Notes under the pieces: generated by a model
Told to the model about the DNA's origin: nothing
Database searches by the model: none
What the model saw: the letters and a program-made list of their open reading frames with translations, nothing else
Shown: positions 1-48,483 of the stretch, one piece after another
Layout: each line of letters starts with the position of its first letter
How positions within the stretch are numbered: position 1 is the stretch's first letter
Source: Nitrospina sp. LS_NOB
GTDB taxonomy: Bacteria > Nitrospinota > Nitrospinia > Nitrospinales > VA-1
Reading direction: 5' to 3'
Assembly (NCBI GenBank): GCA_001542995.1
Contig: LFLA01000020.1
Location: forward strand, 1 to 48,483
Length of the DNA: 48,483 nucleotides
Translations under genes and position numbers: made by a program

Positions 1-142
1 TATATACTGCTCTTCTTCCGGTGAGGATAATGCCCCCAAGGACAACCATTGTCGCTTATATATCAATTTAATACTCATAAGTCAATTTTTTTCAGGGCCG
101 ATGACCGCGTGACTCTTTCCTCTGCGTCATCGCGAACGGGAT

Positions 143-41419: not shown

Positions 41420-42349
41420 ATGGAACCCCGAAAAATTAAGATCGGCAGCAGGGGGAGTCCCCTGGCATTGTGGCAGGCCAATTGGATCAAAGACCAGTTA
41501 GAATCTCTGCATCCTGAGATTCCGGTAGAAATTGTCGTCATTAAAACTTCCGGCGATAAGATCCAGAATGTTCCGTTGGCTAAAATCGGTGGCAAGGGTT
41601 TATTCGTTAAGGAAATCGAAGAAGCCATGTTGAGAAAAGAGGTCGATTTTGCTGTCCACAGTATGAAAGATATGCCGATCAAGTTTCCCTTTGCCTTGTG
41701 TATTGCGGCGGTTACAAAAAGGGAGAATCCTTTTGATGCATTAATCGCAAGAGGCAATAAAAAGTTAGACGAACTTCCAAGGGGTGCCAAGGTCGGGACA
41801 GGCAGTTTAAGAAGGATGTCGCAGTTGTTGCATTACCGTCCCGATCTAAGTCTGGTTCCTCTTCGCGGCAATCTTGAAACGAGGATTAAAAAACTGGAAA
41901 CGGAGGGGTTGGATGCGATCATTCTTGCCGCTGCGGGCCTCATTCGCATGGGGTGGGACGATAAAATCACAGAAATGATCAGCCCCGAAATTTTATTGCC
42001 GGCAATGGGGCAGGGAGCCGTCGGGATTGAAGCGCGAAAACATGATGTCGACAACCAGATTCTTTTGGCCGATATGGATGATGAAGATACGCATCTGGCT
42101 CTGGATGCCGAAAGAGCAGTCGTCACTCAACTTGAAGGCGGTTGCAACGTTCCCATTGGAGCATTTGCAACGATCGAGAAAGACCAAATGACGTTAAAAG
42201 GGCTGGTCGCAAGCCTTGATGGAAAGACGCTCTATAAAACTGAATTGCAGGGCCGTAAACTCGATGCTAAATCCATGGGAAAAGAGTTGGGCAGCACGTT
42301 ACTGGATATGGGCGGCGATAAAATTATGCAGGAAATCCATTCCACCTGA
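41420..42349 (+). CDS. hemC: Hydroxymethylbilane synthase (porphobilinogen deaminase)
   Basis: Polymerises four porphobilinogens to hydroxymethylbilane. 309 residues, beginning with the base after the hemA stop. Motifs: KIGSRGSPLALWQANWI, VPLAKIGGKGLFVKEIEEAM, VDFAVHSMKDMPIKFP, TGSLRRMSQLLHYRPDL, LRGNLETRIKKL, and the dipyrromethane-cofactor Cys in EGGCNVPIGAFA. The expected next pathway gene hemD does not follow; the sequence character changes instead. Confidence 0.96.
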   Translation: MEPRKIKIGSRGSPLALWQANWIKDQLESLHPEIPVEIVVIKTSGDKIQNVPLAKIGGKGLFVKEIEEAMLRKEVDFAVHSMKDMPIKFPFALCIAAVTKRENPFDALIARGNKKLDELPRGAKVGTGSLRRMSQLLHYRPDLSLVPLRGNLETRIKKLETEGLDAIILAAAGLIRMGWDDKITEMISPEILLPAMGQGAVGIEARKHDVDNQILLADMDDEDTHLALDAERAVVTQLEGGCNVPIGAFATIEKDQMTLKGLVASLDGKTLYKTELQGRKLDAKSMGKELGSTLLDMGGDKIMQEIHST

Positions 42350-42580
42350 ATGCTCCCTGTCGTCTCTGGAACTCAAAAGGAACTCGAAAAAATTCCAGAG
42401 ATTGTCACGGATAGCAATTTAAGTTCTTGCGTGTGCCGATATGCCCTGGAAGATAGGCGTGGAGTTTATGCCAGCACTGGTTTATCGTGCGTGGGTAATG
42501 AAAGAGGTGGATGATATGCGGTCATTGAGAAGCCATGCTGTGTTGAACTCAGTGTTGTACACGCCCCGTTCTGGTTCGTT
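42350..42580. other. Non-coding junction after hemC
   Basis: No supported gene. An inverted repeat TCTCTGGAA (42363-42371)/TTCCAGAGA (42393-42401) follows hemC but lacks a T-tract, so it is at best a weak terminator. The first ~75 bases look like the AT-rich host DNA; from about 42430 to the G run the composition is intermediate. A hemD start was looked for and not found. Confidence 0.5.
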
Positions 42581-42606
42581 GGGGGGGGGGGGGGGGGGGG
42601 GGGGGG
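42581..42606 (+). repeat. 26-base poly-G homopolymer
   Basis: Twenty-six consecutive G, the longest homopolymer here, 16 bases before the GTG start of the giant surface-protein gene. The frame of that gene is open leftward across the run (to about 42515), so a few bases more or less would shift any upstream start. It coincides with the change in base composition. Confidence 0.95.
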
Positions 42607-42622
42607 TGCTCCTCGTGATGCA

Positions 42623-44206
42623 GTGAAAAATACCGCGCTACCGAAAAAACCTCGCCATTTCCGAGTTTCATGCCTGTCCCTGATCGGGCTCTTGACCGCA
42701 GCCACCTTCTCCCTGCTGTTCACCGCATATCCGGCTAACGCCGACCACGATGGCAACGAAGCGCCGGTGGCGACAAACCCGATCCCGCACCAGTTCCTGA
42801 TCCTGTATGCGTTCCAGCGGCTGGAGTTGTCCGACTACTTCCACGGCCCGGAGGATGCCGGCGCGGTCATTACCTACGCCGCGAGTTCGGACCCGGATGG
42901 GGATGTCGTGCTCAGCGTGGACGGCAGCGTGCTGACCATGCAGGGGTATTACCTGGGCCCCGCGCGTGTGACCGTCACCGCCACCAGCGAGGGCGGCCTG
43001 AGCGGGACGCAAACCTTCGCGGCCACGGTGGTGCCGCAGCCCACCGGCCAGTTGATCGCGGAGGGGCTGAGCGTGACCGAAGGCGACAGCGGCACACTGC
43101 GGGTGCGGGTGCCGCTCATCATCTTGGGCGAGGCGCCGAAGTGGCCGACCGTGGTGATACCGTATGTGGATGTGGAGAGCACCACGCTCTCCCCTGATGA
43201 ATACCGCATGCCCGAGCCCTTCACCATCCTGCCCGACGACCGCGACCTCTTTGGCAACCCGGGGGCGCCGCGCGATGATTCCTTCACTTTCGAGATCAAC
43301 AACGACACCCTCATCGAGGGTCTTGAAAAGATCGTCTTCCGTTTTCGCACCGCCGCGCCGAGTTCCCTGATAGTCAACCAGGCCGTGACCGTCCTGGTCA
43401 ACGACAACGACTACGCCGAGATAAGATTTCTGGCAGCGGAAATACGCGACGGCATCGTCACCGAAGAAGGCGAGCTTTTTGGTCCCATGCTGGAAATGGT
43501 CAACGGTCCCGCGCAACGGGATGTCGTGGTGCGGGTTTTCGTCAGCAGCAGCATCGCGCAACGGCAGCCGTTGCCGCACTTACGCATTGATTTTGCCACG
43601 GATTTCGCCAATCCATTGGACCACCGACTGGACTTCACCATCCCGGCCGGCGCGGGCGGTCCCGGCGACCCGATCCAGACGCTGTTCACCCCCCTGAACG
43701 ACGACAACCAGCACGAGCCGGACGAAGTGGCATACATTTTCTTTGGCTTGGCGCAACCGGACGAACGGGTGCGGGTGCTTAATGCTTTGCCGAATTTGCT
43801 CCCTCATTCGATAAAAGTCACGTTCATCAACGACGACAACGCGCCGCCGCACACGGTCGGCACTGTGCCCAAGGTCATCCTGTATCAGGGCGGCAACGCG
43901 GAAGAGATCGATATTTCCCCGTATTTCGACGACCTGGACGGCGACGACCTGGCGTATGCGGCGAATATTGCTCTTCGGTTCGAGGGTTCATCAGATGTGT
44001 CGATCGATAATGACAATCGCATCGTGTCGGTGGCGTTGTCCGGGGCGTCGATGACCCTGACCCCGGATGGGACGGCGCTTAATGACGATGCGCTCCCGGC
44101 GACCCTCCTCATGACCCTGAAGGCGAGGGATGCGGAACACCCCGTTGCGCCGGCCGTGCAAAGGTTTGAGATCGTGCTGGAAAAACCGCCGACCCCGCGA
44201 CGGTAG
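42623..44206 (+). CDS. Giant secreted surface protein, N-terminal part (before first frameshift)
   Basis: 527 residues from GTG 42623. A basic N terminus and hydrophobic stretch (CLSLIGLLTAATFSLLFTAY, cleavage near ANADHD) form a signal peptide. Then come a dystroglycan/cadherin-like module (APVATNPIPHQFLILYAF... to about 140), Calx-beta modules at about 145-265 (LSVTEGDSGTLRVRVP; DDSFTFEINNDTLIEGLEKI) and 270-400, and another beta module at 400-520 with DLDGDDLAYAANIAL. The frame stops at TAG 44204-44206, but the next frame upstream of 44245 reads ATVGGVPPTGGGTREDLGDF, clearly continuing the protein, so a one-base loss near 44190-44200 splits it. Codon use is very GC-rich, unlike every gene before 42.4 kb. 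Confidence 0.8.
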   Translation: MKNTALPKKPRHFRVSCLSLIGLLTAATFSLLFTAYPANADHDGNEAPVATNPIPHQFLILYAFQRLELSDYFHGPEDAGAVITYAASSDPDGDVVLSVDGSVLTMQGYYLGPARVTVTATSEGGLSGTQTFAATVVPQPTGQLIAEGLSVTEGDSGTLRVRVPLIILGEAPKWPTVVIPYVDVESTTLSPDEYRMPEPFTILPDDRDLFGNPGAPRDDSFTFEINNDTLIEGLEKIVFRFRTAAPSSLIVNQAVTVLVNDNDYAEIRFLAAEIRDGIVTEEGELFGPMLEMVNGPAQRDVVVRVFVSSSIAQRQPLPHLRIDFATDFANPLDHRLDFTIPAGAGGPGDPIQTLFTPLNDDNQHEPDEVAYIFFGLAQPDERVRVLNALPNLLPHSIKVTFINDDNAPPHTVGTVPKVILYQGGNAEEIDISPYFDDLDGDDLAYAANIALRFEGSSDVSIDNDNRIVSVALSGASMTLTPDGTALNDDALPATLLMTLKARDAEHPVAPAVQRFEIVLEKPPTPRR

Positions 44207-44244
44207 GAGGCGTTCCGCCAACAGGCGGGGGTACGCGGGAGGAT

Positions 44245-46929
44245 TTGGGCGACTTCATGCCGTTCTTCGAATCGCCCGCCGCTTTCAGGGTCAGGGAAAA
44301 TAAGAACTTCGTCGGCACCGCAATGGTGTTCGACCCGAACATCGAGGACCGCATCACCTTCCTCGAGATCAACGGCGGCGCGGACGCCGGGTTGTTTGCC
44401 TTGGGCGCCATCGACTATAACGCCGATGGTTCCGCCGCCGCCGCGATCCGCTTCGTCGCCGCCCCCGACTACGAGGACCCCCGGGACGAAGGCGCCGACA
44501 ACGAGTATCACTTCACTCTGGTCGCGGAGAGCGGCGAGGGCGAGAGCGCGCGCACTGAGAGCCAGTCGGTCACTGTGACGGTGACCAATGTGCCGATAGA
44601 GCCGCCGCTCCTAACGCGGGCTTTCCCGCCGCTGAATTTTTCCCTGTTTGACAACCCCGTGGTCCTCACGCTTGGCGACTATTTCGCGTCCAGTTCTGGC
44701 TCCGCAGGCTTTTTGAGTTATGGCACGTCCGTCGAAGAAGCGGGGATTGTAAACTTCGTGATCCGCCCCGGTTTGATCATATTGGGACCGTTAAAGGTCG
44801 GCGAAACGGTTGTGGATGTGATCGCGACGGATACCACCGATATCGACGACCGGAATCAACCGACCACGACCGCGCGCATCCATGTGACCGTGGTCGACCC
44901 CGGGCGCACCCCGGGCGCGGCGCTCAACCTGCTGGCGAATCGCGAGGGACAGAATATCGTGCTGACCTGGCAGGCCCCGGTCAACATAGCGGACAGCATG
45001 CTGACGCTGGCGCGTTACGAGGCGCAGCGCCGTATGGATGGCGGCGACTACGGCGCGTCCCGGTCGACCAGCGACACCACGCTTGCCTTTTCCCTGCCCG
45101 GCAAGGGCAGTTATCAGTTCCGCGTGCGCGCGGTCGCGGTTCCTGTTGCTGGGGCGGAGTCTAACGACGAACTGGGTCCCTGGGTGAGCACCAATTACCA
45201 AGACCCCGCCAACCGCCTGCCGGTGGCGCAAGGGGTTTTCGCCATGCAAAGGTTGCGGCAGGGCGGCGACCCGGTGATGGTGGATTTATCCGCCCTGTTC
45301 ACCGACCCGGACGGCGATGTCCTGACCTACACGGCGACCGCGATGCGCCCCTGGGTCGCGTCCGCGAGCGTGGAAAATGGCAGCATGATGAGGCTGTCGC
45401 CGGGCGTGGTCGGCGCCACGATGGTGACCATAACCGCCACCGACCCCGCAGGCTTGGCGGCGCGGCGCACCGCGGCCGTGGCCGTGGAGGGCGCCGCCGA
45501 CACGGACGGCATCTGCGGGCGCACGCCTGAGGTGCAGGTTGTGATCGTCGGGTTTATACCCGGGATAGACGACTGCGCCGATGTCACCCCCGCGCATCTT
45601 GCCGCGATTAGCGAGACATTTCGAATAATAAACCAAGGCGCCAACCTGACCGCCTTGAAGAGCGGGGATTTCGCCGGGCTGAGCAGCATTACCCAGCTTT
45701 TCCTTGCTCAAAACACGCACCTTGTCACGCTGCCGGAGGGCGTGTTCGATGGTTTGGATAGCCTGACCTTCTTTGACTTGGGCAACAACAGAGACGTGCG
45801 CACCCGCACCGGCCTGACCACGCTGCCCGCGGGCCTGTTCCGGGGGTTGGACAGACTGAGAGAACTGAAGTTGGACTTCAATGAACTGGCATCCTTGCCG
45901 ACGAATCTTTTCGCTGGCTTGAGCAACCTGCAGAAGTTGAATCTGAGCATCAATGAACTGACCGCCCTGCCGGCCGGCGTCTTTAGCGGCTTGAGCAGCC
46001 TGCAAGAGTTGGATCTGCGAGGCAATGACATAACAGCCCTGCCGGTGTCTCTTTTCGCCGGCTTGAGCGATCTGGAGTTGCTGGGTCTGAGAGAAAATGA
46101 TCTGGAATCCCTGCCAGCCGGCATCTTCATCGGCTTGGACAGCCTGACCAGCCTGGATCTGGCCGACAACCCCGGCGCGCCGTTCCCCCTGACCTTCGCT
46201 TTGCAGCGCAGCGCGCCGGACGCCGCCTTGACCACCGCGCCGTTCGGGCTGCGCCTGGCGCTGGCCGAGGGCACGCCCTTCGCCGCCAGCGTGGACTGGA
46301 GCGCAACCAATGCTGCGCCGGCTAGCGGTGCCGCCAGCATGGCCGCCGGCGCCGCTGACGGAATGTCCTTTAATGTGGCTTTCAGCGACCTGGACGCGCC
46401 CCTCACCGTAACCATGCGCAACCCGAGGTTTGACGGCTCTCCCACGGTCACTGGCATCAGCCTGCAAGTGGGCGGTCCCTTTGTCATCGGCGCGAGCGAT
46501 ACGGCCGGCAGCCATACCCCGATCTTCACGGAAGCGGAATATCGTTTCACTCTGCCCGAAAATCAGGATGGCGGCAGCGAGCCGGTCGCGGTGGGCGTGG
46601 CGCGCGCCACCGCTGCGGGCGGCGGCGACATGGATGTCGCCTATCGCATCACTGACGGGGACACCAACCGCTTCGCCATCAACCCGACCAGCGGCGCCAT
46701 CACCTATATCGGCGCCGGCGAGGACTTTGAAAGTGACCCGATCGACTACACCCTGACGCTGGAGGCAGCCAACGGCGCCGCCACCGCTGCCGCCGACGGA
46801 CGAGGATGCCGGCGATACCATCGCCTACACCATCAGCGACAGCGACGACGACGCCAACGCCGACCACGCCTTATTCGAGATCAATCCCGACAGCGGCGCG
46901 CTGGCCTTCATCAATGCCCCCGACTTTGA
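44245..46929 (+). CDS. Giant secreted surface protein, middle part with LRRs
   Basis: The first supported start (TTG 44245) is probably artificial; this is the continuation of the previous frame. Modules in order by residue of this frame: cadherin-like 1-115 (FRVRENKNFVGTAMVFDPN, ending SVTVTVTNV), a beta module 120-220, fibronectin type III 225-315 (LNLLANREGQNIVLTWQAPV; YQFRVRAVAV), a cadherin-like/Ig module 330-425 (LFTDPDGDVLTYTATA), about six leucine-rich repeats 440-645 of BspA type (LPEGVFDGLDSLTFFDLGNN; LPTNLFAGLSNLQKLNLSIN), and a further cadherin module from about 755. After about 46795 the frame yields Arg/His-rich nonsense, whereas the +1 frame resumes TDEDAGDTIAYTISDSDDD, so a second frameshift lies there. 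The translation up to about codon 850 is real. Confidence 0.78.
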   Translation: MGDFMPFFESPAAFRVRENKNFVGTAMVFDPNIEDRITFLEINGGADAGLFALGAIDYNADGSAAAAIRFVAAPDYEDPRDEGADNEYHFTLVAESGEGESARTESQSVTVTVTNVPIEPPLLTRAFPPLNFSLFDNPVVLTLGDYFASSSGSAGFLSYGTSVEEAGIVNFVIRPGLIILGPLKVGETVVDVIATDTTDIDDRNQPTTTARIHVTVVDPGRTPGAALNLLANREGQNIVLTWQAPVNIADSMLTLARYEAQRRMDGGDYGASRSTSDTTLAFSLPGKGSYQFRVRAVAVPVAGAESNDELGPWVSTNYQDPANRLPVAQGVFAMQRLRQGGDPVMVDLSALFTDPDGDVLTYTATAMRPWVASASVENGSMMRLSPGVVGATMVTITATDPAGLAARRTAAVAVEGAADTDGICGRTPEVQVVIVGFIPGIDDCADVTPAHLAAISETFRIINQGANLTALKSGDFAGLSSITQLFLAQNTHLVTLPEGVFDGLDSLTFFDLGNNRDVRTRTGLTTLPAGLFRGLDRLRELKLDFNELASLPTNLFAGLSNLQKLNLSINELTALPAGVFSGLSSLQELDLRGNDITALPVSLFAGLSDLELLGLRENDLESLPAGIFIGLDSLTSLDLADNPGAPFPLTFALQRSAPDAALTTAPFGLRLALAEGTPFAASVDWSATNAAPASGAASMAAGAADGMSFNVAFSDLDAPLTVTMRNPRFDGSPTVTGISLQVGGPFVIGASDTAGSHTPIFTEAEYRFTLPENQDGGSEPVAVGVARATAAGGGDMDVAYRITDGDTNRFAINPTSGAITYIGAGEDFESDPIDYTLTLEAANGAATAAADGRGCRRYHRLHHQRQRRRRQRRPRLIRDQSRQRRAGLHQCPRL

Positions 46930-48483
46930 GGCGCAAGGCTCTGCCGCAAGCGACAACGACTATCTGGTGCAGGTTATCGCCACCGGCGGCGACGACGACC
47001 GCGCGATGATGGTGAGGCAGGACATCACCGTGACCGTGACCGATGAGAATGATGCGCCCACTGCCAATGCCGGGCCGAATCAAAGTGTGGCCGAGGACGC
47101 CGGCGTGACGCTGGACGGCTCCGGCAGCAGCGATCCCGAGGGCGAGACCCTGGCCTATCTGTGGACGCAGACCGCGCCGGCATCGGGACCGGGGTCGAAT
47201 GTCGTCTTAAGCGGTGAGGACACCGCCATGCCGAGTTTTACTGCGCCAACGCAACTGGCCGCCAATGTTGACCTGGTGTTCAGCCTGGTTGTGACCGATG
47301 CACGCAATCGCGCCTCCCCGGCTGACACGGTAACCATCACCGTGACGGCCGGGGCCAACGATGCGCCCACTGCCAATGCCGGGCCGAATCAAAGTGTGGC
47401 CGAGGACGCCGGCGTGACGCTGGACGGCTCCGGCAGCAGCGATCCCGAGGGCGAGACCCTGGCCTATCTGTGGACGCAGACCGCGCCGGCATCGGGACCG
47501 GGGTCGAATGTCGTCTTAAGCGGTGAGGACACCGCCATGCCGAGTTTTACTGCGCCAACGCAACTGGCCGCCAATGTTGACCTGGTGTTCAGCCTGGTTG
47601 TGACCGATGCACGCAATCGCGCCTCCCCGGCTGACACGGTAACCATCACCGTGACCAATGTCAATGACGGGCCGACGATCAGCGGCAGCCCGGCGACCAC
47701 GGTAGCCGAAGACAACGCATATTCCTTCACCCCGACGGGTGCGGATGTTGATGCGGGCACGACGCTGGTATATTCGATTGCAAACCGGCCCTTATGGGCC
47801 GGGTTTGACACCGGCACCGGCGTCTTGAGCGGCACGCCGGACAACGGCGATGTCGGGACCACCACCGGCATTGTGATCAGCGTTTCTGACGGCGTGCTGA
47901 GCGCGTCCCTGGCCCCGTTCAATCTCACCGTGACCAATGTCAATGACAGGCCGACCGGGTTACCGACCATTAGCGGCACCGCGACCCGGGACGAGACCTT
48001 AACAATGGATACCTCCGGCATTGCCGATGACGATGGTCTGGGGTCCTTCAGTTATCAGTGGCAGGCCGGGAACACGAATATCAGCGGCGCCACCTTGAGC
48101 ACATTCCTCCTGACCCAGGCCGAGGTAGGCGAGACCATCACCGCGACGGTGAGCTATATCGATGGCCGCAATACCCCTGAAAGCCTGACCAGTGAGGCCA
48201 CGGCTGCGGTCACGAACCCCAACGCAGGGTTTGCCGAGCTCAATACCGTGATCCTGCCGGAAATGGCGCGGGCCATAACGGACCAGACGGTGAGTACGAT
48301 AACACAACGCATCGACCAGGCCGGGAGCGGCGGCAGCGCCCGGTCCGTCACTATTGCCGGGCAGTCCACATTGGCCGGGGCGGCATCTGCCCACGGTCAG
48401 GCCATTGCCGATGGCAGGCTGAGCCTTAAGGACGTGCTGGGCAACTCCGATTTTGTCCTGCCGCTGAGTGATGCGGGGGGCAA
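46796..48483 (+). CDS. Giant secreted surface protein, C-terminal part (runs off window)
   Basis: Open from about 46796 to the window end (562 codons) without a start codon of its own; it is the third segment of the same protein. Modules: cadherin repeat with DENDAP ending near 47056, two identical K319L-type PKD domains (SVAEDAGVTLDGSGSSDPEG; LAYLWTQTAP) at 47051-47346 and 47360-47655, a putative Ig (He_PIG) domain with PTGADVDAGTTLVYSI and GVLSGTPDNGDVGTTTG (about 47670-47945), a further Ig-like module to about 48215, then 'FAELNTVILPEMARAITDQT', which resembles the linker before autotransporter barrels. If so, the barrel lies beyond the window and the protein is surface-displayed by type V secretion (inference). 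Confidence 0.8.
47051..47655 (+). repeat. Two identical 296-bp direct repeats (PKD-domain unit)
   Basis: 47051-47346 and 47360-47655 are identical base for base by eye, with a 14-base gap (period 309 bases, 103 codons). Each encodes one PKD-type domain. The period is a multiple of three, so copy-number change would preserve the frame. Confidence 0.93.

What the first reader, a model, noticed from the sequence alone, without database searches (positions are those of the whole stretch)
42350..48483. Abrupt change of genome character at a 26-G run after hemC
Up to hemC all genes have balanced composition and A/T-ending codons. Beyond the G run the DNA is very GC-rich (GCG, CTG, GAC, GGC codons dominate), with no repeats of the types scattered over the first 42 kb, and the expected hemD is absent. 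Either a foreign adhesin gene has been inserted behind hemC or two unrelated contigs were joined at a homopolymer. I consider an assembly chimera at least as likely as transfer.
Basis: partly seen in the sequence, partly recalled or inferred. Interest (0 to 1): 0.8.

Follow-up and report, generated by a model that had tools for sequence, protein, structure and literature searches.

The report
Surface-protein gene behind a G-run
The sudden GC-rich stretch after hemC is most likely a genuine, acquired surface-adhesin gene sitting behind a slippery run of Gs, one of several such genes in this uncultured bacterium, rather than DNA of two organisms glued together, but only sequencing reads could prove the exact join.

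Summary
In detail: exactly 26 G (42581-42606), GC 47% before and 61% after, GC3 about 0.3-0.6 before and 0.77-0.80 after. The window is a whole contig (C6) of a 26-contig draft genome. The preferred interpretation (chimera at least as likely as transfer) is not favoured. (1) Contig C7 has the same layout: native dispersed repeats, G23, then a GC-rich gene with a related start and a C-terminal stretch 94% identical in DNA. (2) Contig C5 begins with a GC-rich autotransporter barrel whose 3' end runs, without any G run, into native dispersed repeats and rpsT. (3) Long G tracts are a property of this genome: 12 runs of at least 12 (up to 40), several in or at the start of native genes, four at autotransporter-type genes; one is an in-place expansion of a ribosome-binding site that has 3-6 G in relatives. 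hemD is not expected after hemC: relatives have a dehydrogenase or nadC there. Best reading: a decaying, horizontally acquired, poly-G-associated autotransporter adhesin, comparable to Campylobacter capC/capD. The contig ends at a k=77 graph branch shared with C7. Whether hemC is the adhesin's true left neighbour remains unproven; a mis-join inside the same genome is the main rival.

The parts
41420..42349 (+). hemC (porphobilinogen deaminase), native; last native gene before the step
   Evidence: PF01379 and PF03900; up to 91% identical in genus relatives over its full length
42350..42580 (+). spacer of average GC between hemC and the G run; no counterpart in 60 relatives
42516..42518 (+). 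possible true start (ATG behind AGAGGTGG at 42503-42510); its frame reaches the adhesin only if the G run is a multiple of 3, and as assembled (26) it stops 36 codons on
   Evidence: sequence; inference
42581..42606 (+). poly-G tract, 26 bases
42623..44206 (+). adhesin, first open part, from a GTG with a signal-peptide-like sequence (KNTALPKK...FTAYPANA)
   Evidence: no Pfam family
44170..46929 (+). adhesin, second open part (other frame): leucine-rich repeats about 45820-46167, cadherin domain about 46540-46785
46757..48483 (+). adhesin, third open part, running off the contig: PKD and bacterial cadherin-like domains
47051..47655 (+). tandem duplication, period 309, 296 bases exact; longer than the assembly k, so the copy number is uncertain
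48227..48483 (+). stretch shared with the C7 adhesin (93.8% over 257 bases); in C7 it leads into a PF03797 barrel; the last 77 bases are identical, the assembly's k
4..100 (-). element that also lies upstream of the C7 adhesin and at the ends of C1 and C24, here pointing off the left end of the contig

Best explanation
The genome carries a small set of horizontally acquired, GC-rich autotransporter-type surface adhesin genes whose 5' ends sit next to long poly-G tracts, and the window shows one of them behind hemC. Shown: the tract, the composition step, the adhesin domains, a second gene with the same layout on C7, poly-G tracts in native genes, and a GC-rich autotransporter end continuous with native DNA on C5. 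Inferred: the tract changes length by slipped-strand mispairing and thereby switches or tunes the adhesin. From the ATG at 42516 the adhesin frame is reached only at run lengths divisible by 3, so 26 would be an OFF length; alternatively the tract acts upstream of the GTG at 42623. Two further frameshifts suggest that this copy is decaying (or miscalled). The composition step is then the border of the acquired gene.
For: C7 repeats the layout native repeats / G23 / GC-63% gene with a related start and the same C-terminal linker plus PF03797 barrel. C5:1-828 is a complete GC-59% PF03797 barrel followed, with no G run, by dispersed repeat shared with many contigs and by rpsT. Seventeen runs of at least 11 G exist, some inside or at the start of native genes. 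C5:76997 G15 is an in-place expansion of 3-6 G in genus relatives. C12 (G12 in a signal peptide of a YadA-anchor protein) and C14 (C40 in a YadA-head/collagen gene) are surface genes with native neighbours. The heavy tail is for G/C runs only. All runs are shorter than k=77.
Against: No read data. The hemC-to-nadC synteny of relatives is broken exactly here, and nadC lies at the end of C26. The leader found before the poly-G on C7 and C19 is absent before the window's tract. No relative of the C7-type barrel was found in the genus. Assemblers use smaller k in early rounds, at which poly-G could cause a false join. Switching was not observed.
Confidence: 0.6

Rival explanations
1. Mis-join inside one genome: the adhesin is native to this genome, but the assembler attached it to the wrong G-ended left flank. 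Its true left flank could be C19 (leader MNLTVKKSGRALRNNFSGLFPVFP, then G11, contig end) or C13 (G16, contig end), and hemC would continue to the nadC end of C26.
For: C13 and C19 dead-end in G runs. C19 has a leader like that upstream of the C7 adhesin. Relatives have nadC close behind hemC.
Against: The final k (77) is longer than every run, so 77-mers carry unique flank. The spacer offers a good ribosome-binding site and ATG in front of the run. C26 starts in dispersed repeat, as expected if an insert such as the adhesin precedes it, since the C5 barrel is followed by the same repeats.
Confidence: 0.25
2. Cross-species chimera: the GC-rich part belongs to another organism of the sample and was joined at a homopolymer.
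For: GC and GC3 step at the run. No homologue of the C7-type barrel in the genus. One contig begins with an Illumina adapter (CTCTTCCGATCT, C21), so the assembly is not perfectly clean.
Against: It would have to happen at C6 and C7 alike, each time within 16-23 bases of the start of a related gene, and C5 shows a GC-rich autotransporter joined to native repeat DNA without a run. Contamination is estimated at 0.44%.
Confidence: 0.12
3. The G runs themselves are sequencing artefacts (two-colour chemistry reads no signal as G), and the biology is only an acquired adhesin.
For: C13 and C19 end in pure G. Genus relatives hold at most one run of 18 or more G per genome.
Against: Most runs have unique sequence on both sides, occur on both strands, and lie at gene starts, at a ribosome-binding site or in repeat-rich surface genes. 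The exact lengths may still be wrong.
Confidence: 0.1

Closest known systems
Campylobacter capC / capD autotransporters (PMC7168839)
   Different: Tracts there are about G4-G10, here 12-40; different bacterium; the passenger here is of LRR/cadherin/PKD type; length variation between cells was not seen here
Simple-sequence-repeat phase-variable genes of Neisseria, Helicobacter and Campylobacter (phasomes; PMC5953494, PMC6321876, PMC2823697)
   Same: Homopolymeric G/C tracts at gene starts or inside genes, surface proteins over-represented
   Different: Length variation was not observed here (one assembly); several tracts lie at metabolic-type genes; tracts are unusually long
Classical autotransporters with PF03797 barrel
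   Same: The stretch shared with C7 leads there into a PF03797 barrel; signal-peptide-like start; repeat-rich passenger
   Different: The window's own copy is cut off before the barrel and broken by frameshifts
Assembly chimera at a homopolymer
   Same: Abrupt composition step at a homopolymer on a draft contig
   Different: The same kind of gene is found joined to native DNA without a homopolymer, and the homopolymers are found in native genes

Membership tests
Autotransporter adhesin (PF03797, type Va) | N-terminal signal peptide | tested here: inconclusive
   Signal-peptide-like start at 42623 by eye; no predictor was run
Autotransporter adhesin (PF03797, type Va) | C-terminal beta-barrel | tested here: inconclusive
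   Not on the contig; the shared linker continues into PF03797 positions 1-98 on C7, and C6 ends on a 77-mer of that path
Autotransporter adhesin (PF03797, type Va) | Repeat-rich adhesive passenger | tested here: met
   LRR, cadherin, PKD and Cadherin_4 above cut-off
Poly-G phase-variable gene | Homopolymer tract beyond chance at the 5' end of the gene | tested here: met
   26 G, 16 bases before the GTG; none of 11 or more expected in the same-composition control
Poly-G phase-variable gene | Tract length changes frame or promoter | tested here: inconclusive
   Frame from ATG 42516 is joined only at multiples of 3; no sigma-70-like site around the run
Poly-G phase-variable gene | Tract length varies between cells | not testable with these tools
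   No reads available
Assembly chimera between organisms | GC-rich gene of this type found in the genome only behind poly-G joins | tested here: not met
   C5:1-828 is continuous with native repeats and rpsT without a G run
Assembly chimera between organisms | No spanning reads, uneven coverage | not testable with these tools
   No reads available

The most novel reading that the evidence does not exclude
An uncultured bacterium has a genome-wide poly-G switching repertoire with unusually long tracts (up to 40 G), acting on acquired GC-rich autotransporters and trimeric adhesins and also on native non-surface genes through an expanded ribosome-binding site, and its genus relatives lack it as a set.
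Probability: 0.35. Interest if true: 0.6.

Novelty: new member of a known kind. Interest (0 to 1): 0.4.

Why it matters
It turns a suspected assembly error into a testable case of homopolymer-linked surface variation in an uncultured lineage, with tracts much longer than those described for Campylobacter autotransporters. It also shows that a GC step at a poly-G run in a draft genome need not be contamination, and that such tracts and shared adhesin parts break contigs at surface genes.

Tried and rejected
Missing hemD as evidence of a break: rejected, hemD is never beside hemC in relatives. G run as a collapse point of the final assembly graph: not supported, k=77 exceeds all runs, although smaller k rounds cannot be excluded. 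Virus or plasmid origin: no match in viral contigs or plasmids. Close relatives of the adhesin among 85,000 species: none found with exact peptide patterns, a method that sees close relatives only. porA-like promoter spacing: no sigma-70-like site around the run. The leader shared by C7 and C19 was looked for upstream of the window's adhesin: absent. NCBIfam hits to effectors such as XopAC are leucine-rich-repeat cross-matches far below their cut-offs. An earlier notebook line giving 25/28 as in-frame run lengths was wrong; one search shows multiples of 3.

Full report
What is there. The window is the whole of contig C6 (48,483 bases) of a draft genome of 2.65 Mb in 26 contigs, 98.8% complete with 0.44% contamination. 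hemC ends at 42349, a 231-base spacer follows, then exactly 26 G (42581-42606), then a GC-rich gene that runs to the contig end. GC is 0.47 left and 0.61 right of the run; GC3 rises from 0.32-0.57 to 0.77-0.80. The gene is open in three pieces in two alternating frames (42623-44206, 44170-46929, 46757-48481). It has a signal-peptide-like start, leucine-rich repeats, a cadherin domain, PKD and bacterial cadherin-like domains and a 309-base tandem duplication.

hemD. The expected hemD is a false lead. The only hemD of the genome is on C2. In 27 hemC loci of relatives hemD is never adjacent; an amino-acid dehydrogenase gene lies beside hemC in 12 and nadC in six. In this genome nadC lies at the right end of C26, behind about 500 bases of dispersed repeat. 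So hemC-to-nadC synteny is interrupted here, either by an insertion or by a wrong join.

How the contig ends. Exact overlaps between contig ends are 77 bases again and again, so the assembly was made with k=77. The right end of the window shares exactly 77 bases with contig C7: the window stops at a graph branch inside a stretch that two adhesin genes share (93.8% over 257 bases). The left end carries an element that also lies upstream of the C7 adhesin and at the ends of C1 and C24, in part also on C19. Contig breaks in this genome thus cluster at surface-gene elements and dispersed repeats.

The same layout elsewhere. C7, read on its minus strand, goes from native dispersed repeats through G23 into a GC-63% gene with a signal-peptide-like start (MRNPVLPKK..., compare KNTALPKK... 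in the window), the shared linker and the beginning of a PF03797 autotransporter barrel. That copy is frame-broken too. C5 begins with a complete PF03797 barrel at GC 59% and GC3 0.68; its stop codon at 828 is followed within about 70 bases by native dispersed repeat and then the rpsT gene, with no G run. C12 begins with G12 inside the signal peptide of a YadA-anchor protein at GC 58%, with native DNA downstream. C14 carries C40 inside a YadA-head/collagen/YadA-anchor gene between two native genes.

Poly-G is native to this genome. Seventeen runs of at least 11 and seven of at least 18 are present. In 794 kb read here, A/T runs stop at 10 while G/C runs reach 30, although G/C runs of 4-8 are rarer than in a composition-matched control. 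At C5:76997 the 15 G stand where genus relatives have 3-6 G in the ribosome-binding site, with the same flanks: expansion in place, not a join. At C7:61983, 25 G break the frame of a low-GC gene. Of 12 runs of at least 12, four are at autotransporter-type genes, which make up a very small part of the genome. This count was made after the fact, and YadA-type genes were not searched exhaustively.

Interpretation. A cross-species chimera would have to strike twice, each time just upstream of the start of a related gene, and would not explain C5. I therefore favour an acquired, GC-rich autotransporter adhesin with a poly-G tract at its 5' end (0.6). The tract probably alters expression by slippage: the ATG at 42516, behind AGAGGTGG, reads into the adhesin only if the run is a multiple of 3; a role upstream of the GTG at 42623 is the alternative. 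Campylobacter capC and capD are close functional precedents, including their decay (PMC7168839). A mis-join within the same genome (0.25) is the main rival, because C13 and C19 dead-end in G runs and C19 carries a leader like that of C7.

Limits. No reads, one assembly, uncertain run lengths and copy numbers, organism unnamed, origin of the adhesin not traced. Length switching is inferred from anatomy and precedent, not shown.

Noticed in passing
C5:76997-77011 (L131:4998-5012): A ribosome-binding-site G tract of a metallo-hydrolase gene is expanded to 15 G where genus relatives have 3-6.
   Followed up: yes
C7:61983-62007 (L129:4984-5008): 25 G inside a low-GC native gene put its N-terminal part and the rest in different frames.
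   Followed up: partly
C14:100693-100732 (L128:5694-5733): A 40-base C tract (coding strand) encodes polyproline inside a YadA-head/collagen-like/YadA-anchor surface gene between native genes.
   Followed up: partly
C14:134311-134340 (L084:17135-17164): A 30-base C tract near the 3' end of a flippase-like membrane protein gene.
   Followed up: no
C15 right end (L066:16308-16403): An efflux-pump-like gene appears truncated just before a G24 run, 72 bases before the contig end; that end overlaps the end of C17 by 26 bases.
   Followed up: no
window 1-121, C1 start, C24 end, C7:1804-1935, C19:17-239: An upstream element, followed on C7 and C19 by a MNLTVK..FSGLFPV leader, recurs at contig ends, suggesting more unassembled copies of surface genes.
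   Followed up: partly
C21 start (L072:1-12): The contig begins with CTCTTCCGATCT, an Illumina adapter end.
   Followed up: no
L186 (G004:C253:1422-2225): A genus relative has a 40% identical relative of the C5 barrel at GC 52%, next to a collagen-like gene.
   Followed up: partly
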